Below, piece after piece: positions 11,522 to 64,000 of a stretch of DNA of 64,000 bases; positions within the stretch are counted from its first letter, which is position 1, and each line of letters begins with the position of its first letter. A program made the translations under genes and the position numbers. The notes beneath the pieces are model-generated. The model was given only the letters and a program-made list of their open reading frames with translations, made no database searches and was not told the DNA's origin. Location of the stretch: positions 558,001 through 622,000 of the forward strand of contig NC_064466.1 in NCBI RefSeq assembly GCF_023343835.1. The letters run 5' to 3'. The DNA is from Lagopus muta (Eukaryota > Chordata > Aves > Galliformes > Phasianidae).

Positions 11522-11523
11522 GA

Positions 11524-14496: not shown

Positions 14497-14603
14497 ATGT
14501 GGATGTTTGGTGGCCCTGCTAGGCAGGGGGGTTGGAACTACATGATCCTTGGGGTCCCTTCCAACCCGGGTGATTCTATGATTCTATGATTCTATGATTC
14601 TAT

Positions 14604-31032: not shown

Positions 31033-31393
31033 TGTATGGGAACTGCTGAGTCACGGCCTGAACCTCTGATTGATCACCTGAGGCGAGCCTTGAGTCAGCC
31101 AGAGGAGCACAGGTGAAGGCAATTCACCTGTGCTGCCGGAAGGGGTGGAGCCAGGCTCCCCCCCTCCTGGACCTATTTAAGAGCTGGCTACCAGAGGGGA
31201 AGGATCTCTTCTGGAGATCCTCCTCTTTTGGTATCTTCTGGTGAGCTCAACCCAAGGGTAAGCTCTTCCACTTATTCTCTTTTGTGATCCTTGTTTGCTT
31301 TGCCTTACTCTTTTGATTATATTGCGATTATAACATCTTGATATCTATTGATTATACACAATTATATTGTGATTATAACATCTTGGTTATACA
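31033..31393 (+). repeat. ERV-1 5' LTR (361 bp)
   Basis: Begins TGTATGGGAAC and ends GGTTATACA. A TATA-like CTATTTAAGAG lies near 31175. Differs from its 3' partner at about 22 positions plus a short indel, around 6 percent by eye. Confidence 0.93.
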
Positions 31394-31434
31394 CTTGGCG
31401 AGCCAGGCAGGCTGAATATACTGAAATTAACATC

Positions 31435-32968
31435 ATGTCTTTCCTGTGGAATTTCTATAAATGGGTCAAGGGGGAGAACAATACTTCTCTAGAGAAAATG
31501 ATTCCAGGGCAGATCCCAGGATTTGAGGGATTGCCCTATTATGAGTTAGCTGCCATCATTGAAAAATGGGGGTCCCTTACGCGTTATGGGCAATATCTCC
31601 CCATATCGCATGGCGGACTATTTTCAAGGACTTGGCAAGGATATCCTCATTACCAAAGAAAGACAATTGGCTGCCTCCTTGGTGGCATGGCCACTATTAA
31701 CCGCTTTAAATCATGCGGACTTAAGAAATAATACTTTAGAAACTGAAAATCAGCTTTTGAAAGACCGCATTGAAAAGCTGGAGCACGAACTTAGCGTTTT
31801 AACGGGGAAGAAGCCAATTCTACATCTTCCTGTAAGCCAAATTCGTAACATTTCAATAAATGATGACCAGGCTCCTGAATCAACAGACTTCGTTGATCAG
31901 GACAACAAGAAATCCAAATCAGACCTTGAATGTCCAGTTCTAACTGATCCATTGGAAGTCCGTCCTGTTGTAACCCAGAAAACAAAAAAAAGTACAGGAC
32001 AGACCGGCAGGGGTGCCACCTGATCAATGGCCCCCTGCCCAGACTCATTTACACGTGACAGCTCGGCCATACACGGCAACAGAATTAATGGACTTAGTAC
32101 AACGATTTCGGCAGAAGCCTAGAGAAAGTGTGCCGGCTTGGTTATTGAGACTGTGGGATTCTGGGGCAGAAAGTGTCTTGGTGAATGGCCCAGAAATATC
32201 TAAGTTGGCCACCATGACCGTCCATCCTGCTCTCAGGCAGAGGTTATACGTAGGCAATCAATATCGTGATGAAAACCATTCCATACTAGAATGGTTAATG
32301 GCGGCCTGCCGTGTGGTATGGCCGAATAAATCAGACATACCGTTACATACAGGTATGTGGTCCTCCATGGAGGACCTTCAAAACTATATTCGTGAACTGG
32401 ATGTAAGAGAGGCCATCTATGAAGATGCATTTGATGGCCCTGATATGGTTAAATTTTCAGCAGGGATGAGAGATTTAATTCTACAGCAAGCTCCCTCCCA
32501 TCTGTACAGCACCCTAGTTTCCATATTAAATCCCCTTGTAGCATCAGAAGCCGTAGTCCAGCAGGCTGGACTAGGCGCAATATTCGGTTTTTGGAGGAAG
32601 CAGAGGTCCTGCCGGTAAATAAAACCAAAATGCCGGCTACTCGAGCTCCTCCATTGGGACCCATAAGGGTATCCCGAAAACAAATGTTTAATGATTTAAT
32701 TCGGGCTGGGGTCCAATTTGCTAAGATTGACCGCCAGCCCAACCACGTCCTTCTCCAGCTCTGGAGACAACTAAAGGACAATCAAAAATTCCAGAGCTAC
32801 CCTAAGAAATCAAGGGTAAGAGCTATAGAGAGGGTTCCAACAACAACATGGAACCTAGAAGATTTTATTATTCCAAACAGGAAAAAGAAGCCACCTCAGG
32901 TGTCTCGGGCCACAATGCCTGAGCTGTCAGAAGCAAAAGAACTGGCCCTAGCACAATTCATGCAGTGA
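31435..32968 (+). pseudogene. ERV-1 gag pseudogene
   Basis: Starts with ATG at 31435 and ends with TGA at 32966-32968, parallel to gag of ERV-2. Compared with ERV-2 it has one extra G in the G-run near 31568, one extra A in the A-run near 31985, and a net 40-base deletion near 32566. Each shifts the frame, so no full Gag can be made. It would have encoded the structural polyprotein that assembles particles. Confidence 0.9.
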
Positions 32969-35900
32969 CAAGGGATGTTAGTCCCCGTAGGGCCTCCAGA
33001 CGGGACCGGAGGCCCTATGTAGAATTAACGATTTATTGGTCCCGAAAAAATATTCAGAGAGTTATGGCACTAGTAGATACTGGAGCAGAAACATCAATTA
33101 TCTATGGAGATCCGGGAAAATTTCGTGGCGACAGAGTGATGATTGGTGGTTTTGGGGGACAGACTATTCCGGTCACCCAAACATGGTTAAAATTGGGGGT
33201 TGGGCGTCTCCCACCCCGGGAGTACAAGGTGTCTATTGCCCCAGTCCAAGAATACATCCTGGGCATAGACATTCTATGGGGTCTGGCTCTCCAAACAACT
33301 GTGGGAGAGTTCAGACTTCGACAAAGATGTATCAGTATCCGGGCGGTGCAGGCAATATTAAGAGGCCATGCGAAACATGAGCCTGTTTGCCTGCCGAAAC
33401 CGCGCCGGATTACTAATGTTAGACAGTATAGACTCCCGGGTGGGCAAGATGAAATATCGAGAACGGTGCAGGAATTAGAAAAAGTGGGCATTATAAGACC
33501 TGCACACAGCCCGTATAACTCCCCCATATGGCCGGTGTGAAAGTCGGATGGCACATGGAGAATGACAGTAGCTTACAGGGAATTAAATAAGGTCACGCCG
33601 CCTATTCATGCGGCCGTACCCAATATTGCCTCCCTAATGGACACATTGAGTAGGGAGATAAAAACCTATCATTGTGTCCTAGATCTAGCAAATGCATTCT
33701 TCAGTATCCCAATTGCTGAGGAATCGCAAGATCAGTTTGCGTTTACGTGGGGAGGCAGGCAGTGGACCTTTCAGGTCCTGCCACAGGGGTACGTGCATTC
33801 ACCAACATATTGTCACAATCTAGTGGCGCGTGACCTGGCTGATTGGACAAAACCTGATGATGTTAACCTATATCATTATATTGCTGATCTCCTGTTGACA
33901 TCTGACTCACTGGAGGCAGTAGGACAGGCAGCAGATTCATTAACTGCCTATTTACAACAGAGGGGATGGGCTATAAATCCCCAAAAGGTGCAAGGTCCAG
34001 GCCTGTCCGTAAAATTCCTGGGGGTGGTTTGGTCAGGAAAGACCACAGTGCTACCCAGTGCTGTTACAGATAAGGTTCAGGCATTCCCAGTCCCTACAAC
34101 ATCAAAGCAGCTGCAAGAGTTTCTAGGTATATTGGGTTATTGGCGTTCCTTTATACCTCACCTAGCGCAGCTGCTAAGGCCGCTATACAGACTCACAAAA
34201 AAGGGGCAGCTATGGGACTGGGGGAAAACCGAACAGGATGCTTTCCAACAAGCAAAGCTGGCAGTTAAACAAGCTCAGGCATTGGGTATATTCGATCCTA
34301 CCCTCCCAGCCGAGTTGGACATTCATGTTACTCAAGACTGCTTCGGTTGGGGCCTGTGGCAACGCCAGAACTCTGTTTGGACCCCCATTGGTTTCTGGTC
34401 TCAGGTTTGGCATGGAGCAGAAGAAAGATACAGTATGATTGAAAAACAGTTATTGGCTGCCTATTCGGCATTACAGGCAGTAGAGCCAATAACTCAAACG
34501 GCTGCAGTTATAGTCAAGACCACTCTGCCAATTCAGGGGTGGGTGAAAGATCTGACCCACCTTCCTAAGACAGGGGTGGCCCAAGCACAAACAGTGGCAC
34601 GATGGGTCGCCTATCTCAGCCAAAGGAGCAGTCTGTCTTCATCCCCCTTGAAAGAAGAACTCCAGAAGATCCTAGGCCCAGTTACGTATCACAGTGATGC
34701 ACCAAAAGAAATACTGGTCGCTCCACCAGAGAAGAGTCCCGTTCAGGAGGGAAAATATCCTATCCCTGAAGATGCCTGGTGCACAGATGGGTCCAGCAAG
34801 GGCAACCCGAGCAAGTGGAGAGCAATAGCATACCATCCTTCCAGCAAGACAATCTGGTTCGATGAGGAGAGCAGCCAATGGGCAGAACTGCAAGCCGTGT
34901 GGATGGTTATAACCAAGGAACCCGGTGATGGTATCCTGAACATCTGCACAGATAGTTGGGCTGTGTACCGGGGGCTCGCTCTTTGGATTGCACAGTGGGC
35001 CACCCAGGAATGGACTATCCACGCCTGACCGATCTGGGGCAAAGACGTGGTTAGATATATGGAATACGGTCAAACACAGGACTGTACGTGTCTACCATGT
35101 TTCTGGTCATCAGCCCCTACAGTCACCGGGAAAAGATGAAGCCGACACACTGGCCCGAATTCGATGGATTGAGAATTCACCATCTGAGAACATCGCCCGC
35201 TGGTTACATCAGAAGCTACGGCATGCTGGACAAAAGACAATGTGGGCAGCTGCTAAAGCATGGGGACTGCCCATACAACTATCTGATATCGTCCAGGCCT
35301 GCCAGGATTGCGACGCTTGCTCCAAGATGAGACCGAGATTGTTGCCCGAAACAACAGCCCATCTTGCTAGGGGACACAATCCTCTCCAGCGATGGCAGGT
35401 CGATTACATCGGGCCCCTTCCTCGTTCCAAAGGGGCAAGATAGGCCCTGACCTGTGTCGACACTGCAAGTGGGCTACTGCAGGCCTATCCAGTACCGAGA
35501 GCAAATCAGGCATATACCATCAAGGCACTCACTAAACTGATGTCTGCCTACGGGACACCTCAAGTCATCGAGAGCAACCAAGGGACCAGTACAGGTTGGG
35601 GGATGAGCTGCTGGAGGGGAGCTCTGCGGAAAGGGACCTGGGTGTCCTGGTGGACAACAGGTTGGCCATGAGCCAGCAGTGTGCCCTTGTGGCCAAAAAG
35701 GCCAATGGCTTACTGGGGTGCATTAAAAAGAGCATGGCCAGCAGGTCAAAGGAGGTGATCCTCCCCCTCTACTCTGCCCTGGTAAGACCTCATCTGGAGT
35801 ACTGCGTCCAGTTCTGGGCTCCCCAGTACAAAAAAGACAGGGATCTCTTGGAAAGAGTCCAGCGGAGGGCCACGAAGATGGTGAAGGGCCTGGAGCATCT

Positions 35901-37077
35901 CCCATATGAAGAAAGGCTGAGTGAACTGGGTCTGTTCAGCCTTGAGAAAAGGAGACTGAGAGGGGACCTGATCCAGGTCTATAAATATCTAAGGTGTGGG
36001 GGGCAGAATGGCGAGGCCAGACTGTTTTCAGTGGTGAGTGGAGACAGGACAAGGGGAAACGGCTGGAAACTGCAGCATAGGAAGTTCTGCACCAATGTGC
36101 GAAGGAACTGCTGTACAGTGAGGTGACGGAGCACTGGAACAGGCTGCCCAGGGAGGTGGTGGAGTCTCCTTCTCTGGAGACGTTCAAGACCTGCCTGGAT
36201 GCCTACCTGTGCTACCTGGTGTAGGGAACCTGCTTTGGCAGGGGGGTTGGACTCGATGAGTCGGACTCTGGAGGTCCCTTCCAACCCCTACAATTCTGTG
36301 ATTCTGTGATTCTGTGAAGGGACTCATTTTACTGGTGCAACGATACAGCGCTGGGCAGAAGAAAATAACATCGAATGGCGATTCCACCTGCCATATAATC
36401 CATCAGGGGCAGGCCTCATCGAACGTTATAATAGTATTCTTAAGGCTGCCCTGAAGACAGACTCCCAGTCCTTGCAGGGATGGACGGCAAGACTGTATGA
36501 AACCCTGCGGGACCTGAATGAAAGACCTCGAGATGGCAGACCCAGTGCCCTGAGAATGTTGCAGACGACATGGGCCACCCTGCTTAGGATCCAAATTACG
36601 GGCACTGATCATCAGGTAAGACCCCAGATTGGTAATGAAAATAATCTTCTGCTCCCTGCCCCTGAAAACTTAGAGCCAGGTACCCATAAAATAAAATGGC
36701 CCTGGAAGGTGCAGGTAGGACCCAAGTGGTGTGGCCTACTTGCACCTTGGGGGAGACTATTGGAGGTGGGAGGCTCAGTAGTCCCTCCAGTAACAGGTAC
36801 ATGGCCTACTGATATTGTGGTCAACACTCCCATCTTTATCGCTAAAGGGACCCCTATCGTGTCCCTGTGGCAGATCAGGACACCTCCTTTGGTGCCTGAT
36901 ATCATTATGCAGCTGCAGATATCTGGCCAGAAGGTGTGGTACAGGCGGCCAGGACGTGCCCCAGTACAAGCGGAAGTGTTGACCCAAGACGTGAATTGAA
37001 CCAAGACCTGTATCTTGCCCTGGAGAGCAGACCTTCCCCTCCTGGTACCTCTGAAACATCTGTATTACTCCCCGTGA
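32930..37077 (+). pseudogene. ERV-1 pro-pol pseudogene, split by a CR1
   Basis: Protease, reverse transcriptase, RNase H and integrase are all recognisable. Damage relative to ERV-2: stop TGA at 33538; the second-to-last Asp pair of the YIDD box reads YIAD (33883-33885); a 9-base deletion near 34868; stop TGA at 35026; a 2-base deletion near 35048; stop TAG at 35441. The central integrase Asp is replaced by Asn (35576-35578), a CR1 is inserted at 35587-36316, and a late stop lies at 36997. The element cannot supply its own polymerase or integrase. Confidence 0.92.
35587..36316 (+). mobile_element. CR1 inserted in ERV-1 pol
   Basis: A 730-bp 5'-truncated CR1 with three ATTCTGTG tail units. 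It interrupts the integrase coding sequence. The 7-base AAGGGAC occurs directly before (35580-35586) and after (36317-36323), while ERV-2 has it once, so it is the target duplication. Its ORF2 remnant is open for 176 codons. It belongs to the same subfamily as the copy at 7335-9175. Confidence 0.96.
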
Positions 37078-37410
37078 GTCTGTGAGCCTTCAGGACCACT
37101 GGAAGGAACAAAATGCCATCAAGCGTTCCAGTGTTGCTGTCAGATCACGTACAACACCCGGTGATGGTCTGCATGGGACTGATGGAACATAGAACGGACC
37201 TGCACCTCAGGACCTTATGCCTCCAGTCACGTCATCGAGCACTGGCCCATAGAAGAATATAGACATCCACTGATCGTCACTTGTCTTGAACTGTACCAGC
37301 ACACGTCGCGATAAAATTGTATAAGCGTCGCGATATACCGGATCTCTGTATTAAGGAAAGCTTACCCTTTTGTTAACCTGATCATTGGTTCACGCCGTGA
37401 AGGAGTGGAG

Positions 37411-37768
37411 TGTATGGGAACTGCTGAGTCACGGCCTGAACCTCTGATTGATCACCTGAGGCGAGCCATGAGTCAGCCAGAGGAGCACAGGTGAAGGCAA
37501 TTCAGCTGTGCTGCCAGAAGGGGTGGAGCCAGGCTGCACCCCTCCTAGACCTATTTAAGAGCTGGCTACCAGAGGGGAAGGATCTCTTCTGGAGATCACC
37601 TCTCTTGGTGTCTTCTGGTGAGCTCCGCCGAAGGGTAAGCTCTTCCACTAATTCTCTTTTGTGATTGTTGTTTACTTTGCCTAATTCTCTTGATTATATT
37701 GTGATTATAACATCTTGATATCTATTGATTATACAATTATATTGTGATTATAACATCTTGATTATACA
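37411..37768 (+). repeat. ERV-1 3' LTR (358 bp)
   Basis: TGTATGGG...ATTATACA, preceded by a purine-rich GAAGGAGTGGAG polypurine tract. The 3' neighbour is unique sequence starting GTGTTCCAG. Confidence 0.93.
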
Positions 37769-43615: not shown

Positions 43616-44005
43616 TGGTAAGCTCAGCTGTTGTGTGAGGTGTATTCTGCTGCCTGCTTCTGCCAGTGCTCTCCTGGCGCTCCATCACTTGGAACAAATT
43701 CACAGATGCCTGGGATGAGCTACACGTGAATGTTGTATGCTTTTTATGTTTCTGAAAAATGCCTTTTGCTGATGATTTGAGCAGTCTGGGCAGTTTGTCC
43801 ATGTCAGCACCAGTGCTGTGGTGCAGTCGGGAATTGGAAACATCTCTGCATCTGTGAGCCTTAATGCAGTTACGTGCAGCTTATGTTGTGGATGAAGGGG
43901 AGGTTTCTGTTCCACCACAGGCTCCAAACTGGAGCCCTGCTGTCTCTAGGAGCAAGAAATATTTGTATCCTGGTGTAATTTTAAGCCACAAACCTGAAGT
44001 CTTGC

Positions 44006-44349
44006 TGTATGGGAACTGCTGAGTCACGGCCTGAACCTCTGATTGATCACCTGAGGTGAGCCATGAGTCAGCCAGAGGAGCACAGGTGAAGGCAATTCAG
44101 CTGTGCTGCCGGAAGGGGTGGAGCCAGGCTCCCCCCCTCCTGGACCTATTTAAGAGCTGGCTACCAGAGGGGAAGGATCTCTTCTGGAGATCCTCCTCTT
44201 TGATATCTTCTAGTGAGCTCAACCCAAGGGTAAGCTCTTCTACTTATTCTCTTTTGTGATCCCTGTTTGCTGTGCCTTACTCTTTTGATTATATTGCAAT
44301 TATAACATCTTGGTTATACATATTGCAATTATAACATCTTGGTTATACA
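44006..44349 (+). repeat. ERV-2 5' LTR (344 bp)
   Basis: TGTATGGGAACTGC...GGTTATACA. CTATTTAAGAG near 44147 is the likely TATA box. The last part is a tandem duplication of a 29-base unit (ATATTGCAATTATAACATC followed by TTGGTTATAC). No canonical AATAAA is visible. Confidence 0.96.
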
Positions 44350-44351
44350 CT

Positions 44352-44369
44352 TGGCGAGCCAGGCAGGCT
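44352..44369 (+). other. ERV-2 primer-binding site
   Basis: TGGCGAGCCAGGCAGGCT starts 2 bases after the 5' LTR, the position of a tRNA primer site, and begins with the expected TGG. I could not match it to a specific tRNA. The same sequence follows the ERV-1 5' LTR. Confidence 0.7.
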
Positions 44370-44387
44370 GAATATTCTAAAATTAAC

Positions 44388-45959
44388 ATGTCTTTCCTGT
44401 GGAATTTCTATAAATGGGTCAAGGGGGAGAACAATACTCCCCTAGAGAAAATGATTCCAGGGCAGATCCCAGGGTTTGAGGGATCGCCCTATTACGAGTT
44501 AGCTGCCATCATTGAAAAATGGGGTCCCTTACGTGTTATGGGCAATCTCTCCCCATATCGCATGGCAGACTATTTTCAAGGACTTGGCAAGGACATTCTC
44601 ATCACCAAAGAAAGACAATTGGCTGCCTCCTTGGTGGCATGGCCACTATTAACCGCTTTAAATCATGCGGACTCAAGAAATAATACTTTAGAAACCGAAA
44701 ATCAACTTTTGAAAGATCGCATTGAAAAGTTAGAGCACGAACTTGGCGTTTTAACGGGGAAGAAGCCAATTCTACATCTTCCTGTAAGCCAAATTCGTAA
44801 CATTTCAATAAATGATGACCAGGCTCCTGAATCAACAGACTTCGTTGATCAGGACAACAAGAAATCCAAATCAGACCTTGAATGTCCAATTCAAACTGAT
44901 CCATTGGAGGTCCGTCCTGTGATAACCCAAAAAACAAAAAAAGTACAGGACAGACCGGCAGGGGTGCCACCTGATCAATGGCCCCCTGCCCACACTCATT
45001 TACATGTGACAGCTCGGCCATACACAGCAACAGAATTAATGGATTTAGTACAGCGATTTCGGCAGAAGCCCAGAGAAAGTGTGCCGGCTTGGTTATTGAG
45101 ACTGTGGGATTCTGGGGCAGAAAGTGTCGTGGTGAATGGCCCAGAAATATCTAAGTTGGCCACCATGACTGTCCATCCTGCTCTTAGGCAAAGGTTATAC
45201 GTGGGCAATCAATATCGTGATGAAAACCATTCCATACTGGAATGGTTAATGGCGGCCTGCCGTATGGTATGGCCAAATAAATCAGACATACCGTTACATA
45301 CAGGTATGTGGTCCTCCATGGAGGACCTTCAGAACTATATCCGTGAACTGGGTGTAAGAGAGGCCATCTATGAAGATACATTTGATGGCCCTGATATGGT
45401 TAAATTTTCAGCAGGGATGAGAGATTTAATTCTACAACAAGCTCCCTCCCATCTGTACGGTACCTTAGTTTCAATATTAAATCCCCTTGTAGCATCAGAA
45501 GCCGTAGTCCAGCAGGTTGCCCAGTTAGTTGCCGATTTGGGAGAAACAGAACGCCTGCGGACTAGGCGCAATATTCGGTTTTTGGAGGAAGCAGAGGTCC
45601 TGCCGGTAAATAAAACCAGAATGCCGGCTACTCGAGCTCCTCGATCGGGACCCATAAGGGTATCCCGAAAACAAATGTTTAATGATTTAATTCGGGCTGG
45701 GGTCCAATTTGCTAAGATCGACCGCCAGCCCAATCACGTCCTTCTCCAGCTCTGGAGACAACTAAAGGACAATCAAAAATTCCAGAGCTACCCTAAGAAA
45801 TCCAGGGTAAGAGCTATAGAAAGGGTTCCAACAACAACATGGAACCTAGAAGATTTTATTGTTCCAAACAGGAAAAAGAAGCCACCTCAGGTGTCTCGGG
45901 CCACAATGCCTGAGCCATCAGAAGCAAAAGAACTGGCCCTAGCACAATTCATGCACTGA
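44388..45959 (+). CDS. ERV-2 Gag polyprotein
   Basis: 523 residues from the ATG at 44388; the frame is open further upstream into the primer site, but this ATG is the one conserved in ERV-1. The N-terminus begins MSFLWNFYKWVK, without the glycine after Met needed for myristoylation. A coiled coil at about residues 100-130 (NTLETENQLLKDRIEKLEHE) is followed by a capsid-like helical region. The C-terminal part is basic (NRKKKPPQ) and has no CCHC zinc knuckle, unlike most orthoretroviral Gags. It would form the intracellular particle. It ends in TGA and overlaps pro-pol by 46 bases. Confidence 0.88.
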   Translation: MSFLWNFYKWVKGENNTPLEKMIPGQIPGFEGSPYYELAAIIEKWGPLRVMGNLSPYRMADYFQGLGKDILITKERQLAASLVAWPLLTALNHADSRNNTLETENQLLKDRIEKLEHELGVLTGKKPILHLPVSQIRNISINDDQAPESTDFVDQDNKKSKSDLECPIQTDPLEVRPVITQKTKKVQDRPAGVPPDQWPPAHTHLHVTARPYTATELMDLVQRFRQKPRESVPAWLLRLWDSGAESVVVNGPEISKLATMTVHPALRQRLYVGNQYRDENHSILEWLMAACRMVWPNKSDIPLHTGMWSSMEDLQNYIRELGVREAIYEDTFDGPDMVKFSAGMRDLILQQAPSHLYGTLVSILNPLVASEAVVQQVAQLVADLGETERLRTRRNIRFLEEAEVLPVNKTRMPATRAPRSGPIRVSRKQMFNDLIRAGVQFAKIDRQPNHVLLQLWRQLKDNQKFQSYPKKSRVRAIERVPTTTWNLEDFIVPNRKKKPPQVSRATMPEPSEAKELALAQFMH

Positions 45960-48900
45960 CAAGGGGTGTTAGTCCCTGTAGGGCCTCCAGACGGGACCGG
46001 AGGCCCTATGTAGAATTAACAATTTATTGGTCCCGAAAAAATATTCAGAGAGTTATGGCATTAGTGGATACTGGAGCAGAAACATCAATTATCTATGGAG
46101 ATCCAGGAAAATTTCATGGCGACAGAGTGATGATTGGTGGTTTTGGGGGACAGACTATTCCTGTCACCCAAACATGGTTAAAATTGGGGGTTGGGCGTCT
46201 CCCACCCCGGGAGTACAAGGTGTCTATTGCCCCAGTCCAAGAATACATCCTGGGCATAGACATTCTATGGGGTCTGGCTCTCCAAACAACTGTGGGAGAG
46301 TTCAGACTTCGACAAAGATGTATCAGTATCCGGGCGGTGCAGGCAATATTAAGAGGCCATGCGAAACATGAGCCTGTTTGCCTGCCAAAACCGCGCCGGA
46401 TTACTAATGTTAGACAGTATAGACTCCCGGGTGGGCAAGATGAAATATCGAGAACGGTGCAGGAATTAGAAAAAGTGGGCATTATAAGACCTGCACACAG
46501 CCCGTATAACTCCCCCATATGGCCAGTGCGAAAGTCGGATGGCACATGGAGGATGACAGTAGATTACAGAGAATTAAATAAGGTCACGCCGCCTATTCAT
46601 GCGGCCGTACCCAATATTGCTTCCCTAATGGACACATTGAGTAGGGAGATAAAAACCTATCATTGTGTCCTAGATCTAGCAAATGCATTCTTCAGTATCC
46701 CAATTGCTGAGGAATCGCAAGATCAGTTTGCGTTTACGTGGGGAGGCAGGCAGTGGACCTTTCAGGTCCTGCCACAGGGGTACGTGCATTCACCAACGTA
46801 TTGTCATAATCTAGTGGCGCGTGACCTGGCTGACTGGAGAAAACCTGATGATGTTAACCTATATCATTATATTGATGATCTCCTGTTGACATCCGACTCA
46901 CTGGAGGTAGTAGGACAGGCAGCTGATTCATTAACTGCCTATTTGCAACAAAGGGGATGGGCTATAAATCCCCAAAAGGTGCAAGGTCCAGGCCTGTCCG
47001 TAAAATTCCTGGGGGTGGTTTGGTCAGGAAAGACCAAAGTGCTACCCAGTGCTGTTATAGATAAGGTTCAGGCATTTCCAGTCCCTACAACATCAAAGCA
47101 GCTGCAAGAGTTTCTAGGTATATTGGGTTATTGGCGTTCCTTTATACCTCACCTAGCGCAGCTGCTAAGGCCATTATACAGACTCACAAAAAAGGGGCAG
47201 CTATGGGACTGGGGGAAAGCCGAACAGGATGCTTTCCAACAAGCAAAACTGGCAGTTAAACAAGCTCAGGCATTGGGTATATTCGATCCTACCCTCCCAG
47301 CCGAGTTGGACGTTCATGTTACTCAAGACGGCTTCGGTTGGGGCCTGTGGCAGCGCCAGAGTTCTGTTCGGACCCCCATTGGTTTCTGGTCTCAGGTTTG
47401 GCACGGAGCAGAAGAAAGATACAGTATGATTGAAAAACAGTTATTGGCTGCCTATTCGGCATTACAGGCAGTAGAGCCAATAACTCAGACAGCTGCAGTT
47501 ATAGTCAAGACCACTCTGCCAATTCAGGGGTGGGTGAAGGATCTGACCCACCTTCCTAAGACAGGGGTGGCCCAAGCACAAACAGTGGCACGATGGGTCG
47601 CCTATCTCAGCCAAAGGAGCAGTCTGTCTTCATCCCCCTTGAAAGAAGAACTTCAGAAGATCCTAGGCCCAGTTACATATCACAGTGATGCACCAAAAGA
47701 AATACTGGTCACTCCACCAGAGAAGAGTCCCGTTCACGAGGGAAAATATCCTATCCCTGAAGATGCCTGGTACACAGATGGGTCCAGCAAGGGCAACCCG
47801 AGCAAGTGGAGAGCAATAGCATACCATCCTTCCACCGAGACAATCTGGTTCGATGAGGGGGATGGTCAGAGCAGCCAATGGGCAGAACTGCGAGCCGTGT
47901 GGATGGTTATAACCAAGGAACCCGGTGATGGTATCCTGAACATCTGCACAGATAGTTGGGCTGTGTACCGGGGGCTCACTCTCTGGATTGCACAGTGGGC
48001 CACCCAGGAATGGACTATCCACGCCCGACCGATCTGGGGCAAAGACATGTGGTTAGATATATGGAATACGGTCAAACACAGGACTGTACGTGTCTACCAT
48101 GTTTCTGGTCATCAGCCCCTACAGTCACCGGGAAACGATGAAGCCGACACATTGGCCCGAGTTCGATGGATTGAGAATTCACCATCTGAGAACATCGCCC
48201 GCTGGCTACATCAGAAGCTACGGCATGCTGGACAAAAGACAATGTGGGCAGCTGCTAAAGCATGGGGACTGCCCATACAACTATCTGATATCGTCCAGGC
48301 ATGCCAGGATTGCGACGCTTGCTCCAAGATGAGACCGAGATCGTTGCCCGAAACAACAGCCCATCTTGCTAGGGGACACAATCCTCTCCAGCGATGGCAG
48401 GTCGATTACATCGGGCCCCTTCCTCGTTCCGAAGGGGCAAGATATGCCCTGACCTGTGTCGACACTGCAAGTGGGCTACTGCAGGCCTATCCAGTACCGA
48501 AAGCAAACCAGGCATATACCATCAAGGCACTCACTAAACTGATGTCTGCCTACGGGACACCTCAAGTCATCGAGAGCGACCAAGGGACTCATTTTACTGG
48601 TGCAACGATACAGCGCTGGGCAGAAGAAAATAACATCGAATGGCGATTCCACCTGCCATATAATCCAACAGGGGCAGGCCTCATCGAACGTTATAATGGT
48701 ATTCTTAAGGCTGCCCTGAAGACAGACTCCCAGTCCTTGCAGGGGTGGACAAAAAGACTGTATGAAACCCTGCGGGACCTGAATGAAAGACCTCGAGATG
48801 GCAGACCCAGTGCCCTGAGAATGTTGCAGACGACATGGGCCACCCCGCTTAGGATCCAAATTACGGGCACTGATCATCAGGTAAGACCCCAAATTGGTAA

Positions 48901-49336
48901 TGAAAATAATCTTCTGCTCCCTGCCCCTGAAAACTTAGAGCCAGGTACCCATAAAATAAAATGGCCCTGGAAGGTGCAGGTAGGACCCAAGTGGTGTGGC
49001 CTACTTGCACCTTGGGGGAGACTATTGGAGGTGGGAGGCTCAGTAGTCCCTCCAGTAATAGGTACATGGCCTACTGATATTATGGTCAACACTCCGATCT
49101 TTATTGCTAAAGGGACCCCCATCATGTCCCTATGGCAGATCAGGACACCTCCTTTGGTGCCTGATATCGTTATGCAGCCGCAGATATCCGGCAAAAAGGT
49201 GTGGTACAGGCGGCCAGGACGTGCCCCAGTACAAGCGGAAGTGTTGACCCAAGACAGAAATACGGCCTGTATCTTGCCCTGGAGAGCAGACCTTCCCCTC
49301 CTGGTACCTGTAAAACATCTGTATTACTCCCCGTGA
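45914..49336 (+). CDS. ERV-2 protease-polymerase-integrase polyprotein
   Basis: The frame is open from 45914, in the -1 frame of gag, with the first ATG at 46055. Expression by -1 frameshifting in the overlap is likely, though no classic slippery heptamer was found. Counting from that ATG: protease LVDTGAETS (Asp5-Gly7); reverse transcriptase with LPQGYVHSP and YIDD at 272-275; RNase H with YTDGSS (Asp575) and WAELRAVW. The integrase has a His/Cys zinc finger, then catalytic Asp784, Asp842 and Glu878. The last two are separated by 35 residues, as in active integrases. About 130 residues after the core have no domain I can name; a dUTPase, common in ERVL pol, is not evident. All key residues are present. 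It ends at TGA 49334-49336. Confidence 0.93.
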   Translation, partial: AIRSKRTGPSTIHALTRGVSPCRASRRDRRPYVELTIYWSRKNIQRVMALVDTGAETSIIYGDPGKFHGDRVMIGGFGGQTIPVTQTWLKLGVGRLPPREYKVSIAPVQEYILGIDILWGLALQTTVGEFRLRQRCISIRAVQAILRGHAKHEPVCLPKPRRITNVRQYRLPGGQDEISRTVQELEKVGIIRPAHSPYNSPIWPVRKSDGTWRMTVDYRELNKVTPPIHAAVPNIASLMDTLSREIKTYHCVLDLANAFFSIPIAEESQDQFAFTWGGRQWTFQVLPQGYVHSPTYCHNLVARDLADWRKPDDVNLYHYIDDLLLTSDSLEVVGQAADSLTAYLQQRGWAINPQKVQGPGLSVKFLGVVWSGKTKVLPSAVIDKVQAFPVPTTSKQLQEFLGILGYWRSFIPHLAQLLRPLYRLTKKGQLWDWGKAEQDAFQQAKLAVKQAQALGIFDPTLPAELDVHVTQDGFGWGLWQRQSSVRTPIGFWSQVWHGAEERYSMIEKQLLAAYSALQAVEPITQTAAVIVKTTLPIQGWVKDLTHLPKTGVAQAQTVARWVAYLSQRSSLSSSPLKEELQKILGPVTYHSDAPKEILVTPPEKSPVHEGKYPIPEDAWYTDGSSKGNPSKWRAIAYHPSTETIWFDEGDGQSSQWAELRAVWMVITKEPGDGILNICTDSWAVYRGLTLWIAQWATQEWTIHARPIWGKDMWLDIWNTVKHRTVRVYHVSGHQPLQSPGNDEADTLARVRWIENSPSENIARWLHQKLRHAGQKTMWAAAKAWGLPIQLSDIVQACQDCDACSKMRPRSLPETTAHLARGHNPLQRWQVDYIGPLPRSEGARYALTCVDTASGLLQAYPVPKANQAYTIKALTKLMSAYGTPQVIESDQGTHFTGATIQRWAEENNIEWRFHLPYNPTGAGLIERYNGILKAALKTDSQSLQGWTKRLYETLRDLNERPRDGRPSALRMLQTTWATPLRIQITGTDHQVRPQIGNENNLLLPAPENLEPGTHKIKWPWKVQVGPKWCGLLAPWGRLLEVGGSVVPPVIGTWPTDIMVNTPIFIAKGTPIMSLWQIRTPPLVPDIVMQPQISGKKVWYRRPGRAPVQAEVLTQDRNTACILPWRADLPLLVPVKHLYYSP

Positions 49337-49669
49337 GTCTGTGAGCCTTCAGGACCACCGGAAGGAACAAAATGCCATCAAGCGTTCCAGTGTTGCTGTC
49401 AGATCACGTACAACACCCGGTGATGGTCTGCATGGGACTGATGGAACATAGAATGGACTTGCACCTCAGGACCTCATGCCTCCAGGCACATCATCGAGCA
49501 CTGGCCCATAGAAGAGTATGGACATCCACTAATCATCACTTGTCTTGAACTGTACCAACATACGTCGCGATAAAATTGTATAAGCGTCGCGATATACCGG
49601 ATCTCTGTATTAGGGAAAGCTTACCCTTTTGTTAACCTGATCATTGGTTCACGCCGTGAAGGGGTGGAG

Positions 49670-50013
49670 TGTATGGGAACTGCTGAGTCACGGCCTGAAC
49701 CTCTGATTGATCACCTGAGGTGAGCCATGAGTCAGCCAGAGGAGCACAGGTGAAGGCAATTCAGCTGTGCTGCCGGAAGGGGTGGAGCCAGGCTCCACCC
49801 CTCCTGGACCTATTTAAGAGCTGGCTACCAGAGGGGAAGGATCTCTTCTGGAGATCCTCCTCTTTGATATCTTCTAGTGAGCTCAACCCAAGGGTAAGCT
49901 CTTCTACTTATTCTCTTTTGTGATCCCTGTTTGCTGTGCCTTACTCTTTTGATTATATTGCAATTATAACATCTTGGTTATACATATTGCAATTATAACA
50001 TCTTGGTTATACA
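49670..50013 (+). repeat. ERV-2 3' LTR (344 bp)
   Basis: Differs from the 5' LTR at one position, in the C-run of GGCTCC(C/A)CCCCTCCTGG, and shares its 29-base tail duplication. Confidence 0.96.
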
Positions 50014-51605
50014 CTTGCTTTTGAGCCATGAGTGGTGAAAAATGTGTATTTTCATCACTATGACTGAAATGAGATAATGCAGCTGTTTAATGTCTTTTCA
50101 TAATAGAATTTATTAAACATCGGGCATATGTATTTGCAGACCAAAAAAAAGACAGGCAAAAGATGCTGTTCATGCCTGAAGTGATCTTTAAATCCTAAGT
50201 CAAAGCTGTTTTGTTTTTTTTTGCTCTCTTGTATGTCTTTGCTGTGTGTTCTGATTGTCCCTTGCTTTTCCCTTCTGTCTTCCTTTCCCTTTTCTCCGTT
50301 TTCCCCTTTCTCACATGGTTTCCAATCTCTCTCACATTCTAATTCCCCATTTCTTGCTCTTCCCCACCCCTCACACTTTCAGTCCGTAACCTGAGCCTTC
50401 CCTTCCATCTCCTGTTCTTCTCCCCTCTCCTGCTGCTTCTCTGGCTGGCGTTTCCCCTGCCTCTCTCTCACTTTGCCTCTCCCTTGCACTTCTCCCTTTA
50501 CACTCTCCTCCCCTTTCTCCTGCTTCTCCTTTCCATCTTCCTGTTCCCTCTCTCTGTTCTTCCCCTGCGCCTCTCCTTAAAGCCCCCCAGCTTTGCTGTT
50601 CTTTTGCACGTTCTTTTCCCTATTATGCTTGCTTTTTTTCCATTCTCCCTTTCTTCTGGTCTGTCATCATTTCACCATCGCCTGCATGCTTTTCCATCTC
50701 GGGAACATTCTTGAATGCACTTTCCCTCTTGGCCATGCTGTCGATCTACTTCTTACGCTCCGTGCCCCCCTTCTTTGGGACTTTTATACTGCTCTGTCCG
50801 CTTTTGTCTCTTTCATACTCCCGCTCCACTCATCCTCCCTCCCTCCGCTTCTCTCACTTTCCTCACACGTTGCCCACCATATTTTCCTTCTTTTCCTCCC
50901 TCTTACACTCCTCTCTCATGCTTTCCTTATTTCACTTGCACACTTCTGCTGTCACGTGCTCCTTCTTTCTTTTGCACTTTCCTCTCCCAGAGCCTCGCTT
51001 TCCCCTTTGCTGTTTTTCAGCAGTATTTCTTGCTTGCTCCCTTTCACACCTACTTGCACTTTCCCTCCCATGTCTTTGGCAGTGTACCTTTGCTGTTTCT
51101 TTCTCTCTCTACTGCTCCCTCCACCACATGACCCTTTCTCGTTCCTTCCCTGCTCCTTCCGTTCCTTCTCTCTTCCTCTCGTGTGCCGTTTCCCTCTTGG
51201 CTCTTGTTTTCTCTCTCTCTGAAATACTTACCCTCTGTGTTAATCTCCTTCTTAGACACTTTTCCTCTCTGACTCGTGCTCTCTTGAAGAGCTTCCCCTC
51301 TCGCCTGTGTTTTCTGATATGCCTTCTATGTGTCGCTTAATGTGTTTATCTCTTGCATTTTCCTGTCACGCTCTTTCATTTTCCCATTTTCTGTTCTTCT
51401 GCCCCCTTATTCCTCTTGCTTTCCAGTCTTGCATTCTCTCTCTCTTTTGCATTTTTCTTTTCTTGCTTGCATTTCCTCACCTACTTGTGTTTTCTTCTAT
51501 TGCATGTTTCTGCCCTTGTGCGTGTGCTCCTACTCTGGTACTCTGGCTTTTCCTCTCTTTGCTTTCCTCATCTCCCTTGGGTGCTCACACTCTAGCATGT
51601 GTTCA

Positions 51606-51660
51606 CAGAGTCATCACAGAACAGCTTGGGTTGGAAAAGACCTCAAGGATCATCAAGTCT
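51606..51660 (-). mobile_element. CR1 3' tip, minus strand
   Basis: AGAGTCATCACAGAACAGCTTGGGTTGGAAAA then AGACCTCAAGGATCATCAAG (read in two parts) is the complement of a CR1 end. Confidence 0.75.
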
Positions 51661-51854
51661 TCTCTCTCATGGTCTCTCACTTCCCTCACCTCTTCCATGC
51701 TTCTCTTGCTCGTAAAATCTTCCCCTCTTGCATGGAGACTTTCCCTCTTGCTTGCACTTTCCCTCGTGCTTCCTCCTTTCTCACTGAGTCCTTCCCAGGC
51801 TCTTGCAATTTCTCCCTTGCTTTGCTTCCCTTTTGCAGACTTACTTTTTGTAAG

Positions 51855-52110
51855 TACAGGTAGCGACAGGACGAGAGGAAATGGCTTTAAACTGGAAGAG
51901 GATAATTTAGACTAGATAGTGGGAGAAGAAATTCTTTGCTGTGAAGATGGTGAGACTCTGGAAGTGGTCACCCCTCCCTGAAAGTATTCAGGAGCAGGAT
52001 GGGTCTTTGAGCAACCTGCTCTAGTGGGAAATGCCCCTGTCTGTGGCAGGGGCTTGGAACTAGATGATCTTGCAGGTCCCTTGCACCCCAGGCTGTTCTA
52101 TGATTGTGTC
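51855..52110 (+). mobile_element. CR1 3' fragment, plus strand
   Basis: GACAGGACGAGAGGAAATGG, GGAACTAGATGATCTTGCAG and CTGTTCTATGATTGTGTC span the CR1 3' region, with a gap and substitutions. Confidence 0.85.
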
Positions 52111-52194
52111 TATATCTGATTTCCTTCTGTCTTTGTGGTCTTTCCTTCTCCAGCATCTCTGATGCCTGTTTCTTCTGTTCAGTGGTCACAGTCG

Positions 52195-52260
52195 TGGGTT
52201 GATCGTTCACTAGGTGATCTCAGTGGTCTTTCCAACCCTTACGATTCTGTGATTCTGCCA
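52195..52260 (+). mobile_element. CR1 3' tip, plus strand
   Basis: CACTAGGTGATCTCAGTGG, TTTCCAACCCTTACGATTC and a TGTGATTCTG tail mark the last 60 bases of a CR1. Confidence 0.75.
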
Positions 52261-55200
52261 CTTGGTGAAGGTGGTCACCTAGCAAGTAAGGTGAAGAAAA
52301 TGTGGTGACATTTAATGCCTTTTCTTTTGTTTTTCCTGGTTCTTAACAGATCAGACAGATCTTTGGCTGCCTTGCCCACTCTCATCCTTTTCTTCTAATT
52401 TCTGCAACCTCACTATTGCGTGAGATCTGGCTTGTCCACTTCCCTCTTATCTGCTCCGCCTCCCATTTGTGCAGTCCATCTCATGCTGTTGGTTCTTCTT
52501 GTGCCTTTTCTCCAGTGCTTTTTTTCTTGCTCTTTAACTCTCCTGGGTTTGCTTTCTTAGTCTTGTGTGTGTGCTTTCCTTTCCTCTTGCCTGCGTACAC
52601 TTTCCCTTTCTTGCACATGCTTCTTTTCCCATGGGAAGGGGCTGTTTGTCAGGGAGCATAGGGGTGGGATAAGGGATAAAAACGGCTTTAAACTAAGCAA
52701 GAAGAGACATAAAATACAAATACAGAATAAATTTTTGCTGTGTTGAATGTGTGTGATTTTGCTCAACTGCATATGCCACTTGCATGTCTCACTTGCTCAT
52801 GTTCCCTGTCTGTAAGAGTTCTTCTGTGATGCTGTACTTCTCTTTTTGTTCTTTATGCATGAATCGCATCTCTCTTCTGCATGTGTTTTTTTTCTCTGTA
52901 CCTCTCATTTTCCTTCACTCCCTTTTGTACGTATCTTGGGCTTCCCTCACTGTCTTTGGAGTTCTTGGCACACTTCCCCTCTTCTCTCATGCTTATGTTT
53001 GCTCTCTTGGTTTGGCTTTCCCTCTCTGTCAACACTTTTCCCCTCTCTCATTTTTTGCACGCTCTCCCTTTTTTTCCTAACATGGCTTGCCTTTGTAGCT
53101 TCCCTTATTCACAGACACAGCCTCCCTCTCTCTTCTAACTCTCTTGTGCTCCTTTCCTTCTCACAGCCTCAAGTTTTCCTCTCTCTTGCACACACACTTT
53201 CCATCTCTTTGCACTGCATGCTTCCTCTCTCTCACGGGCAGGTTTCCACCCTTCATGCAAACCCCTCACTCTTTCACTTCTGTTTATGTGTTCTGACTTT
53301 TCTTCTCATGCAGCCCCTTCCCTTTCTTGCTTGTGTTGTCCTGCGTATAGTCCCTCTTTCTTGCACTCATTCCCTTCCTCCTTAGTGAACTTTCCCTTGC
53401 CCCAGACTTGCATGATAACCCTCTCATACATGCTTTTCTTCTCTTGCTGCAGTTTCTTACCCTCAAGCTTCCATGTCCTCTTTTACACGCTTTCTCTCAT
53501 GCACTTTTCCCCTTTGTTCTGCTGGGTTTCCCTCTGTCGCACGCATCCCCTTTCTCCTGTGGGTTCTCCCATTTCACTTCCGCTCTCAGGCGCCTTTTCA
53601 TCCTCATGCTTTTCTCTTCCCTCTCGTGCCTGTTCCCCCACCTTCACTGCATTCCTTCAGCCACGTGCTTTCCCCCTGTAGTGCAGCTTCTCTCCATGAT
53701 GGAAGGAGAGGATGCTCTTCCTCTTTAACTGCCTCATACCATTTTTCTCTGGTGCTTGCTCTTCCTCCTCCCTCATGGACTTCTCCCTCCCTCTTGCTTA
53801 GTCTTTTCCTCCCCCCTCCATGCTCAGTCTTTGCTGTCTCTTGCGTACTTGCCATCTCTTGCACACTAGCACTGTCTTGCATGCTTGCTCTCCTGTGCAC
53901 TTTTCTGTCACAATTTTTCTCTTTTGTGTGTGCAAACCATCTTCTTCTTTCATCCATTCTCTCTCCCATGGCTTATATCCTTTTCCTGTGCCTTTTCTCT
54001 TTCTTGCATGATTTCCTTGCGCTGACACTTTTCCTTTTGCTCATTTCTCGTGCACTCATTCTCTCTCACATGGACGTTCCCGCATGCCCTCCTCTCTTAC
54101 TCTCCCATTCATGCACTTCCCTGTTCTCCCTGTGCCTCGCTCTTCCTCTTTCTCTGTGTGCCATCACCCAGTTAGTTTTGCTCTCTGTGTGTGTATGCCC
54201 TAAGTCCATCTCATGCCCATTCACCTTCTCACAAGTGCAGGCTTCCTTTCCCATTCCTGTGACATTGTCCCTGTCTGTTGTCCTTTACCTTTCTCTCTCT
54301 GGCAGTTTCACCCCCTGCCTTCTGTTTCTTTCTGCATTCAGTTGATCCCTTGCCTGTTTTCTTGCCTCTCCATTTTCCCTGTTTCTCACATGCATTTTTC
54401 TCCCTCCTTTTGCTTTGACTGCCTTGCACTTTCCTTTCTGTGCACTCCTACTTATCACCCATTTTACACACTTTATCTCAGGCTTTGTCTGCATATTGTT
54501 TTTACCCTCTTGCATGCACTTTCTTGCATGCTTTCCTTCTCTCTCTTGCATGTGCTGTTGTCACCTCTTTCTCATGTCTGCTTGCCTTCTAGACTGCATG
54601 CAGTTTCCCTCACTTCCATGCTTCTCCTCCTTCTCTTAGAAGGAACAAGAAGGAAATCTTTTTCTCTCTGTCATGCATACACAGTCCCTGTCTCTTTCAG
54701 GCTCCTTTCCTTTCTCTCTGTCATGTTCTTTCCATTTGTCTTGCTTTGGGGCCCTCCCCTTTTCTCATGTGCTTACATGCTCTCTCTTGCTCTCTAGAGC
54801 TTTCCCTAAGCAGGACCACTTCTTCCCTTTGAGCTTTTACTGCTGAGTGTGTCGTACAGCACAGAATGTTCCTTTGGTCAGTCTGGGCCGGCTGTTCTGG
54901 CTTTGCCTTCCCCAACTTCTTGTGCACTCCTGCAGTCCCTGGCTGAGGGGCAGCATGTGAAACATAGGAAACCTGATGTTGTGCAACCTCTGAACAAGAG
55001 TTTAAACACTGACATAATATCAATGCTTTTTAGTCATAAATTCAAAACAGCGTATGAGCTATGAGGAGTTCACTCCACCCCAGCCAGAGCCAGCCTACCC
55101 TCACTGTTAAGCTTTTTCTCTCAGGACCTTGCATGTACGTTTCCCTTCTCTTGCATGCTTTTTCACACCACCTTGTTCTCTCTCTCTTACAGGTTTCTCA

Positions 55201-56627
55201 GTTGTCCCTTTTTCTCTCTACTTCTTTCTTGAGTTCTGGGGCTTCTCTTTTACTTGCATGCACTTCTTTCTCCCTCTACTAGCTGTTTCCCTCTTTTTCC
55301 CTACTAGCTCTTTCCCTCTCTTGCATGCTTTTGCTTATGCATTTGCTTTTCCTTTGCCTCACACTCTCTTAGCCATTCATTCTCTCTGCCATGATCCCCT
55401 GCTCACTTGTGCTCTTTCCCATTCCCTGCTTTTTCCATGCTCTTGCTATTATTCCTCCTATTGACCCCTTGCTGTGTTTCCCTCCCCATCGCTGTCTCTC
55501 CTAATCATCCTTTCCTGGACTCACTTCCCTTCTTTCCTGTCCTTTCTCATCCCTTCCTCGCTGTCCCTACCACTGCCTTCTGCCCCCTGTTCTTTTTGCT
55601 CTTCTTTCCCCTCAGTTTCCACCATTCATGCTCTTAATCTGTCTCCCCTCTTGTTCCTCCTTTCCTGTCATGTTGAATTTGTCCTACTGTGTCTCTTTAC
55701 CTCTTGCTCGGTCTTTTCACTTGGCCTTTTTGCTTTTGCCTTCTTCCCTTACCTCACTTTCTGCCACTCATGTCTATGTGTGCTGTTCCCATCTCCCTCT
55801 CATTTCTTGTTTGCTTGCTGTCTTGCCTTTGCTTTTATTTCCACGTGCCTGACACTATTTGCTTTTTCCCCCTCTCAGCCACACATTGCTTTCTTTAGTC
55901 TGCTTCTGTTTTGGTCTTTGCCTCAGTGCTGTCAGTGCTCCTTTCCAAACTTCTTTTCTTGCTTACTCTTCTCTATTTTTTACCTTGCTCATTCATTCTT
56001 TCTGCATCTTTTCTCTTTTTCCTCATATTTTCCTATGTCCTCTTGTTTGCCTTCTGTCCCTTTTCTCCTTCCCTGCACTTCTTGCTTCATGCCTGCCTTC
56101 CCCTTTCCTTCTTTGCTCCTTGCTTGCCTTTCCCTTGCTTCTTTCTGCTCTCCACCTTTGTCTCTTCGCTCACTCACAACCATTTCTCTCCCTTCCCACT
56201 CACTCTCCCAATCCATCCCTCCTTCATGCTCTTCCCTTTGTCCCTCTCCACACTCCTCTGCCCGCCGTGCTTCTTTCCTTTTTCTTTCCTCTTTCTCTTT
56301 TCTCTGCTCTCCTATCTCCCCCTCTGCTATTTCCCCTATGTCCTCTCTTTTCTCTCTCACTATCTCTCCATACTGCCTCTCCCCCTCCTGCCATTGCACA
56401 GGCTTCTCTCTCCTCTCTCTCACTTCCACAGCCTCCCTCCCTGGTACATGCAGTTCCCTCCATGCACATTCTCTTTTCCTCCCCTTTTCCTCCTCTCCTG
56501 CTCTGTGCTGTTCCCTCTGACAGCTGTTCAGAGCTGTTTCTTGTTCCCTCACTCTTCCCTTCTGCTCACTCCATTTCCCTGCTATCACTCTTATTCCTTC
56601 TGTCCCCGTTTGTTTTTCCTTCTGTCC

Positions 56628-62600: not shown

Positions 62601-64000
62601 ATTCCAACCCAACCAATTCTAGGGTTCCATGGTTCTGTGACCTTTAAGTTCCATTCCAACCCAACCAGTTCTAGTGTTCCGTGGTTCTGTGACCTTTAAG
62701 GACCATTCCTTCCCAACCTTTTCTAGTGTTCTATGGTTCTGTGACCTTTAAGGACCATTCCATCCCAACCTTTTCTAGTGTTCCATGGTTCTGTGACCTT
62801 TAAGGACCTTTCTATAGCAACCAGTTCTGCGGTACCATGTTTCTGTGACCTTTAAGTATCATTCCAAAGCAAGCAATTCTGGGGTTCCATGGTTCTATGA
62901 CCTTTAAGGACCATTCCAACCCAACCATTTCTAGGGTTCCATGGTTCTGTGACCTTTAAGTTCCATTCCAACCCAACCAGTTCTAGTGTTCCGTAGTTCT
63001 GTGACCTTTAAGGTCCATTCCAACCCAACCTTTTCTAGTGTTCCATGGTTCTGTGGCCTTTAAGGACCATTCCAACCCAGCCAGTTCTAGGGTTTCATGG
63101 TTCTCTGACCTTTTAGGACCATTCCAACCCACCCAGTTCTAGTGTTCCATGGTTCTGTGACACTTTAGGACCATTCCAAGCCAACCAGTTCTGGGATTCC
63201 ATGGTTCTGTGTCCTTTAAGATCAGTTCCAATCCAAGCTGTTCTAGGGTTCCATGGTTCTGTGACCTTTAAGGACCATTCCATCCCAACCTTTTCTAGTG
63301 TTCCATGGTTCTGTGACCTTTAAGGACCTTTCCAACCCAACCAGTTCTAGTGTTCCGTGGTTCTGTGACCTTTAAGGACCATTCCAACCCAACCAGTTTT
63401 AGTGTTCCACGGTTCTGTGATCTTTAAGGAACATTCCAATCCAACCAGTTCTGGGGTTCCATGGTTCTGTGACACTTTAGGACCATTCCATGCCAACCAT
63501 TTCTGGGGTTCCATGGTTCTGTGACCTTCAAGGACCATTCCAACCCAAGCAGTTCTGGGGTTCCATGGTTCTGTGACCTTTAAGTTCAGGTCCAACCCAA
63601 CCATTTCTATGGTTTTGCGGTTCTGTGTCCTTTAAGATCAGTTCCAACCCAAGCTGTTCTAGTGTTCCATGGTTCTGTGACCTTTAAGGACCATTCCAAC
63701 GCAACCAGTTCTAGTGTTCCGTGGTTCTGTGACCTTTAAGGTCCATTCCAACCCAAGCGGTTCTAGTGTTCCGTGGTTCTGTGACCTTTAAGGACCATTC
63801 CAGCCCAAGCAGTTCTGGGGTTCCGTGGTTCTGTGATCTTTAAATTCCATTACAACCCAACCAGTTGTAGCGTTCCATGGTTCTGTGACCTTTAAGGACC
63901 ATTCCATCCCAACCTTTTCTAGTGTTCCATGGTTCTGTGACCTTTAAGGACCATTCCAACCCAACCAGTTCTTGGGTTCCATCGTTCTGTGACCTTTTAA
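56628..64000 (+). repeat. 52-bp satellite derived from the CR1 3' tail, about 140 copies
   Basis: The consensus monomer runs TTCCATGGTTCTGTGACC, TTTAAGGACCATTCC, AACCCAACCAGTTCTAG(T/G)G and repeats every 52 bases to the window edge. It matches, in order, the end of a CR1: GATCTTTAAGGTCCCTTCC, AACCCAAACC, ATTCTATGATTC, TATGAT. Variation falls at fixed points (TTTAAG/TTCAAG, ACCAGTTCT/ACCTTTTCT, GGGTT/GTGTT), so distinct monomer types recur. No coding capacity. The array continues beyond the window. Confidence 0.95.

What the first reader, a model, noticed from the sequence alone, without database searches (positions are those of the whole stretch)
44006..50013. Very young env-less ERV with complete gag and pro-pol
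LTRs differ at one of 344 sites, the CTTGC target duplication is perfect, and all protease, RT, RNase H and integrase residues are present. With a neutral rate of about 2e-9 per site per year, one difference suggests under about one million years. It may be polymorphic and possibly still able to move inside cells.
Basis: partly seen in the sequence, partly recalled or inferred. Interest (0 to 1): 0.8.

Follow-up and report, generated by a model that had tools for sequence, protein, structure and literature searches.

The report
Young gamebird ERV-L retrotransposon copy
The window holds a very recent, intact-looking virus-derived jumping element of the ERV-L kind, and it is one of dozens of almost identical copies that spread recently through this bird's genome rather than a lone oddity.

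Summary
44006-50013 is a complete provirus: 344-bp LTRs differing at one site, a CTTGC target duplication, open gag and pro-pol, no env. A paralogous stretch elsewhere in the same genome shows the unoccupied site. By RT kinship and motifs it is a class III, ERV-L-type element.

It is not special in its genome. Of 42 copies whose LTR pairs were compared (this one included, picked by similarity to it), 26 have no substitution. A Gag search scored 82 of 1,428 candidates; 77 have no stop. Of 20 copies read in pieces, 14 were open in all pieces. This is a recent burst, most likely by retrotransposition inside cells.

One difference gives about 0.75 My, with a 95% limit near 4 My. The differing base is shared only with the 5' LTR of an older, broken copy in the same window, so a short conversion tract is not excluded. 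Polymorphism and present mobility were not testable. Unusual details: a possible degenerate dUTPase, LTR length steps with a 29-bp end repeat, 5- or 6-bp target duplications, a 38-nt leader, and 11 of the 82 Gag copies on one 6.8-Mb contig.

The parts
44001..44005 (.). left target duplication CTTGC
   Evidence: empty-site paralogue
44006..44349 (+). 5' LTR, 344 bp; TATTTAAG box by eye at 44147-44154; 29-bp tandem unit twice at 44291-44349
44352..44369 (+). primer-binding site TGGCGAGCCAGGCAGGCT; tRNA-Arg complement by recall only
   Evidence: the tRNA search did not complete
44388..45959 (+). gag, 523 aa, two cysteines, no CCHC box
45914..49336 (+). pro-pol open frame (1140 codons stop to stop), -1 relative to gag
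45967..46021 (+). predicted RNA hairpin beginning 7 nt after the gag stop
   Evidence: z -1.85, 7 of 200 shuffles at least as stable
46001..46279 (+). protease domain (DTG)
46526..47017 (+). reverse transcriptase domain (YIDD)
47765..48160 (+). RNase H domain
48377..48667 (+). integrase core
48866..49198 (+). tail stretch in the place of the ERV-L dUTPase, possibly a degenerate dUTPase; limits approximate
   Evidence: weak; poor model
49656..49669 (+). purine-rich tract GTGAAGGGGTGGAG before the 3' LTR
49670..50013 (+). 3' LTR, 344 bp
50014..50018 (.). right target duplication CTTGC
31033..37768 (+). copy A: older, broken member of the same family with a CR1 fragment in integrase; comparison only

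Best explanation
[quoted passage not shown] Shown: LTR - primer site - gag - pro-pol - purine tract - LTR anatomy, target duplication, empty-site paralogue, and many near-identical copies with open frames at different targets. Inferred: genomic RNA starts in the 5' LTR, Gag builds particles inside the cell, Pro-Pol is reached by some recoding at the end of gag, a tRNA primes reverse transcription, and integrase inserts the DNA with 5- or 6-bp duplications in the same germline lineage, without an envelope.
For: Anatomy and TSD; empty-site paralogue; protease, RT, RNase H and integrase in Pfam; RT 95% to Phasianus, tree with gamebird rows; YIDD, no CCHC, HX4HX28CX2C. Burst: 26 of 42 LTR pairs without substitution, six insertions with one LTR sequence and different TSDs; 77 of 82 scored gag copies without stop; 14 of 20 copies open in all three pieces. 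Differences between this copy and copy A are mostly silent for the number of sites: pN/pS 0.15 in gag, 0.31 in pro-pol.
Against: No expression, particle or mobility data. No canonical slippery heptamer in 45900-45980, so the way pol is translated is unknown. The copies were picked by similarity to this one, so the sample leans to young copies. Some copies are duplicates of one insertion. The single LTR difference might be a conversion tract. Four of 42 copies lack an exact TSD.
Confidence: 0.87

Rival explanations
1. The insertion is older than it looks because gene conversion has made its LTRs alike.
For: The one difference (position 128) is shared only with the 5' LTR of copy A, of 86 LTRs. 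Copy A itself has LTRs that look recombined: its 5' LTR is nearer to this copy than to its own 3' LTR, and its flanks do not match.
Against: Interior differences from other copies are small too, e.g. 10 in 4,953 bases to copy C59. LTR pairs share private variants and length classes within a copy. The frames are open.
Confidence: 0.06
2. The copies spread between cells as particles carrying an envelope from another virus, not within cells.
For: The element has no env, and borrowing is known in principle (PMC5260121 mentions complementation; parts 1-2 of 4 read).
Against: Nothing in the window or in the copies examined points to it; env-less amplification needs no helper. Not tested directly.
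Confidence: 0.06
3. Many copies arose by segmental duplication of the DNA, not by new insertions.
For: C37a/C37b are identical in both fetched regions (481 of 481, 944 of 944) and C39a/C39b share TSD, LTRs and a left flank of 84 of 84 bases. The 5' LTR of the C57 copy is preceded by a purine tract, as in a tandem.
Against: The C39 right flanks agree at only 133 of 200 positions without gaps. Most compared copies have their own TSDs, and this copy has its own TSD and an empty-site paralogue.
Confidence: 0.03

Closest known systems
ERV-L, class III (MuERV-L, HERV-L)
   Same: No env, no CCHC box, YIDD, pro and pol in one frame, HX4HX28CX2C, DX35E (marks from PMC8278194 passages and section 8, PMC1224870 passages).
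   Different: No Pfam dUTPase; primer site not the Leu type by recall; DX57 rather than the DX58 printed for ERV-L.
GGERVL families of chicken (GGERVL-A, GGERVL18)
   Same: Named as ERVL elements of gamebirds. GGERVL18LTR insertions are Gallus-specific (PMC2169234 passages); GGERVL-A was called the most recently active chicken family in earlier work (PMC2329609, whole text). Probably the nearest named relatives.
   Different: Sequence identity could not be tested: no Repbase copy is held. The nearest protein of unknown host, P0013, is 87% identical in RT.
GGERV10 of chicken
   Same: Similar gag and pol lengths, LTRs identical or one base apart, 0-3 My (PMC2329609, whole text); insertion polymorphism known in chicken (PMC5260121, parts 1-2 of 4).
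   Different: LTR ends TGTTG/CAACA there, TGTAT/ATACA here; [quoted passage not shown]
XtERV-S of Xenopus tropicalis
   Same: Young class III element with open genes (PMC8278194, sections 8 and 10 and passages). A Xenopus tropicalis protein, P0017, is 52% identical in RT; whether it is this element was not checked.
   Different: XtERV-S has env, a 158-bp leader, a dUTPase-like segment, tRNA-Ser primer, and gag and pol in one frame separated by a stop.

Membership tests
ERV-L (class III) | RT groups with class III/ERV-L relatives | tested here: met
   Tree of 42 rows: gamebird rows and a mole row in one starred group among amphibian, fish and turtle rows, several of which carry Pfam dUTPase. 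Named MuERV-L and HERV-L rows were not in the tree.
ERV-L (class III) | Gag without CCHC zinc finger | tested here: met
   two Cys only, no CCHC match
ERV-L (class III) | YIDD, HX4HX28CX2C, DX58DX35E | tested here: met
   YIDD at 319; H766 H771 C800 C803; D831 D889 E925, that is DX57DX35E, one residue short of the printed spacing
ERV-L (class III) | No env | tested here: met
   333 bp between pol stop and 3' LTR, no + frame of 100 aa
ERV-L (class III) | dUTPase after integrase | tested here: inconclusive
   No Pfam match even at E 10. Whole tail matches dUTPase-bearing tails at 97.5% but that includes shared integrase ends; dUTPase part alone probability 3.8%, E 0.011, above 100 of 100 column shuffles; model pLDDT 53.8.
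ERV-L (class III) | tRNA-Leu primer site | tested here: inconclusive
   Site read; it looks like tRNA-Arg by recall; the genome search for that tRNA did not complete (seven calls).
ERV-L (class III) | 5-bp target duplication | tested here: met
   5 bp here; in the 42 copies 29 have 5 bp, 9 have 6 bp, 4 no exact match
GGERVL-A / GGERVL18 (named Repbase families) | Sequence identity to the family's reference | not testable with these tools
   no Repbase copy available
GGERV10 | LTR ends TGTTG and CAACA | tested here: not met
   TGTATGG...TATACA here; GGERV10 ends from PMC5260121

The most novel reading that the evidence does not exclude
An ERV-L lineage is still jumping in a living gamebird, without env and perhaps without a working dUTPase, fed by dozens of coding copies, some concentrated on one small contig that might be the W chromosome: a bird counterpart of mouse MERVL.
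Probability: 0.35. Interest if true: 0.65.

Novelty: new member of a known kind. Interest (0 to 1): 0.42.

Why it matters
Young class III elements with open genes are, as far as I recall, best studied in mouse. A bird genome with dozens of near-identical open ERV-L copies would let one test how env-less retroviruses amplify, how their Pol is translated without a canonical slippery site, whether dUTPase is dispensable, and whether small or sex-limited chromosomes shelter intact copies.

Tried and rejected
GGERV10 was first taken as the closest family from gene lengths and rejected on LTR ends. Models of Gag (mean pLDDT 38.6) and of the pol tail (53.8) were too poor, so no fold search was run. 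Gag had no match among solved structures up to E 1 and no Pfam match above cut-off. The tail region alone found one protein, P0013, among 671 candidates, so it gave no outside support for a dUTPase. The host was not identified: 10 of 277 listed flanking ORFs were given to Pfam and only a LINE was recognised. The first codon counts for RT-RNase H and integrase were in the wrong frame and were redone. A segmental origin and LTR homogenisation were considered and kept as minor rivals. Rows dropped: copies C59 and C57 from the LTR table because the primer site lay outside the fetched flank (0 and 2 substitutions); copy A from the pooled dating; of 120 proteins listed I gave 45 to the tree with the window, and 4 of those 46 rows were dropped for coverage or double matches.
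Full report
What is there. 44006-50013 is a complete provirus-like element on the + strand. The two 344-bp LTRs differ only at position 128 (44133 C, 49797 A) and CTTGC is duplicated on both sides. The primer site begins two bases after the 5' LTR, and the gag start follows a leader of 38 nt. Gag is open for 523 codons. Pro-pol is open from 45914 to 49336 in the -1 frame and overlaps the end of gag. Pfam finds protease, RT, the RNase H-like connection, RNase H and the integrase core. A purine-rich tract precedes the 3' LTR. The 333 bp after pol leave no room for env.

The insertion is real. The left flank has one other match in the genome, 89% identical, on contig C59. That stretch aligns straight through the joined flanks (left 279 of 305, right 175 of 195 identical) with a single target, CTTGG against CTTGC. 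It is a paralogue, not an allele: it shows the unoccupied site but says nothing about polymorphism. The search with the right flank did not complete.

Family. Gag has two cysteines and no CCHC box; RT has YIDD; integrase has HX4HX28CX2C and DX57DX35E. These are marks of class III/ERV-L elements in PMC8278194 (sections 8 and 10 and passages seen) and PMC1224870 (passages seen: HERV-L and spumaviruses have no zinc finger). The RT region is 95% identical to a Phasianus colchicus protein, 87% to P0013 (525 member sequences, host unknown), 84% to Tympanuchus pallidicinctus and 67% over 80% of the query to a protein of the mole Talpa occidentalis; the other birds among the 120 listed of 241 hits lie at 30-51%. 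In a 42-row tree the gamebird rows and the mole row form one starred group.

Not GGERV10. Huda et al. (PMC2329609, whole text) describe GGERV10 with similar gene lengths and near-identical LTRs. Lee et al. [quoted passage not shown] The ends here differ.

Genome-wide context. The genome has 1.03 Gb in 165 contigs; the window is C41:558001-622000. The 40 scored LTR matches, of 2,800 candidates, comprise this copy, 14 other pairs and 10 single LTRs. Of the 10 singles, 6 are solo LTRs with perfect 5-bp duplications and 4 follow the purine tract, that is, are 3' LTRs. Twenty-nine more copies were taken from the 40 scored matches to the gag start, of 322 candidates. LTR pairs could be compared in 42 copies besides copy A: 26 without substitution, 6 with one (this copy among them), 2 with two, 4 with three, 2 with four, 2 with five; 40 in 14,156 sites. 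Two pairs of these copies (C37a/b, C39a/b) look like duplicates of one insertion each, though the right flanks of C39a/b agree at only 133 of 200 positions without gaps. All copies were picked by similarity to this one, so the sample leans to young ones. Six copies with different targets share one LTR sequence. The Gag protein search scored 82 of 1,428 candidates; all 82 run from residue 1 to 522 or 523, and 77 have no stop inside. Of 20 copies read in three pieces, gag was open in 18, the first pol piece in 15, the second in 17, all three in 14. The criterion also counted a piece as not open if its alignment stopped more than 5 bases short.

Age. At 1.9-2.0e-9 per site per year, one difference in 344 gives 0.73-0.76 My, Poisson range about 0.02 to 4.3 My; the 42 copies average about 0.7 My. 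The rate is assumed (0.19% per My is used in PMC5260121). The C at position 128 occurs in 2 of 86 LTRs: this 5' LTR and the 5' LTR of copy A. A recurrent change in a C run and a short conversion tract both fit.

Copy A (31033-37768) lies on the same strand, its 3' LTR about 6.2 kb upstream. It differs at 172 of 5,269 aligned interior bases. Its gag and pol are broken by small indels and a 40-base deletion, and a fragment that I recognise as CR1 by recall sits in integrase. Its LTRs differ at 21 to 25 sites, depending on the alignment. Its 5' LTR is nearer to this copy (17 of 344 to the 3' LTR) than to its own partner, and its flanks do not match (ACCGG and GTGTT). It looks like a product of recombination or conversion, so LTR dating of it fails. 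Between A and this copy gag has 38 silent and 20 other changes (pN/pS 0.15), pro-pol 48 and 49 (0.31), as expected if both lineages replicated under selection.

How it likely works. Shown: anatomy, targets, open genes, recent copies. Inferred: transcription from the LTR, Gag particles, tRNA-primed reverse transcription and integration within the germline lineage. Pol must be reached by some recoding: the stops bounding the overlap are kept in 18 of 19 aligned copies, no canonical slippery heptamer lies in 45900-45980, and a predicted hairpin starts 7 nt after the gag stop (z -1.85, 7 of 200 shuffles as stable). Nearly invariant copies give no covariation test. After integrase lies a stretch in the place of the ERV-L dUTPase. 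The whole tail matches dUTPase-bearing tails (97.5%), but this includes shared integrase ends; the dUTPase part alone is weak (probability 3.8%, E 0.011, above 100 of 100 column shuffles), Pfam sees none, the fold model is poor, and the tail search found only P0013. I read it as a possible degenerate dUTPase, unproven.

Details. Target duplications: 5 bp in 29 of 42 copies, 6 bp in 9, no exact match in 4. LTR lengths fall in steps (313-315, 343-344, 366-367; one 5' LTR of 417 against 315), and this copy's LTR ends in two 29-bp units. Contig C57 (6.8 Mb) carries 11 of the 82 scored gag copies, 0.54 expected if even; the 82 are a capped list. Peona et al. (PMC8310711, passages) report 12-54 times more ERV sequence than expected on avian W chromosomes. 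Whether C57 is W was not tested.

Verdict. Eight searches of the open-licence library listed no paper that by title describes such a burst; most listed papers were not opened, so this is weak evidence of novelty.

Noticed in passing
10223-14603: A LINE, CR1 by recall, with open frames of 431 and 996 codons; the second has endonuclease and RT domains, and four TGATTCTA units end it (14571-14603).
   Followed up: partly
56625-63997: A 52-bp satellite, about 142 units at 84% match, running to the window end.
   Followed up: no
50020-56600: A long pyrimidine-rich + strand stretch (GC skew about -0.3 to -0.4, AT skew about -0.3 to -0.5) between the provirus and the satellite.
   Followed up: no
G000 contig C57 (6.8 Mb): 11 of the 82 scored gag copies, about 20 times the even expectation; might be the W chromosome, not tested.
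   Followed up: partly
P0015 (Talpa occidentalis): A mole protein is nearer to the gamebird RT (67%) than any other non-gamebird hit listed, and groups with it in the tree.
   Followed up: partly
31033-37768: Broken sister copy with mismatched LTRs and flanks, pointing to recombination between copies.
   Followed up: yes
L127, L128, L132 (first pol piece of copies C11c, C39a, C9): These copies differ from this one at 14-18 sites in the first pol piece but at fewer elsewhere, which hints at mosaics between lineages.
   Followed up: no
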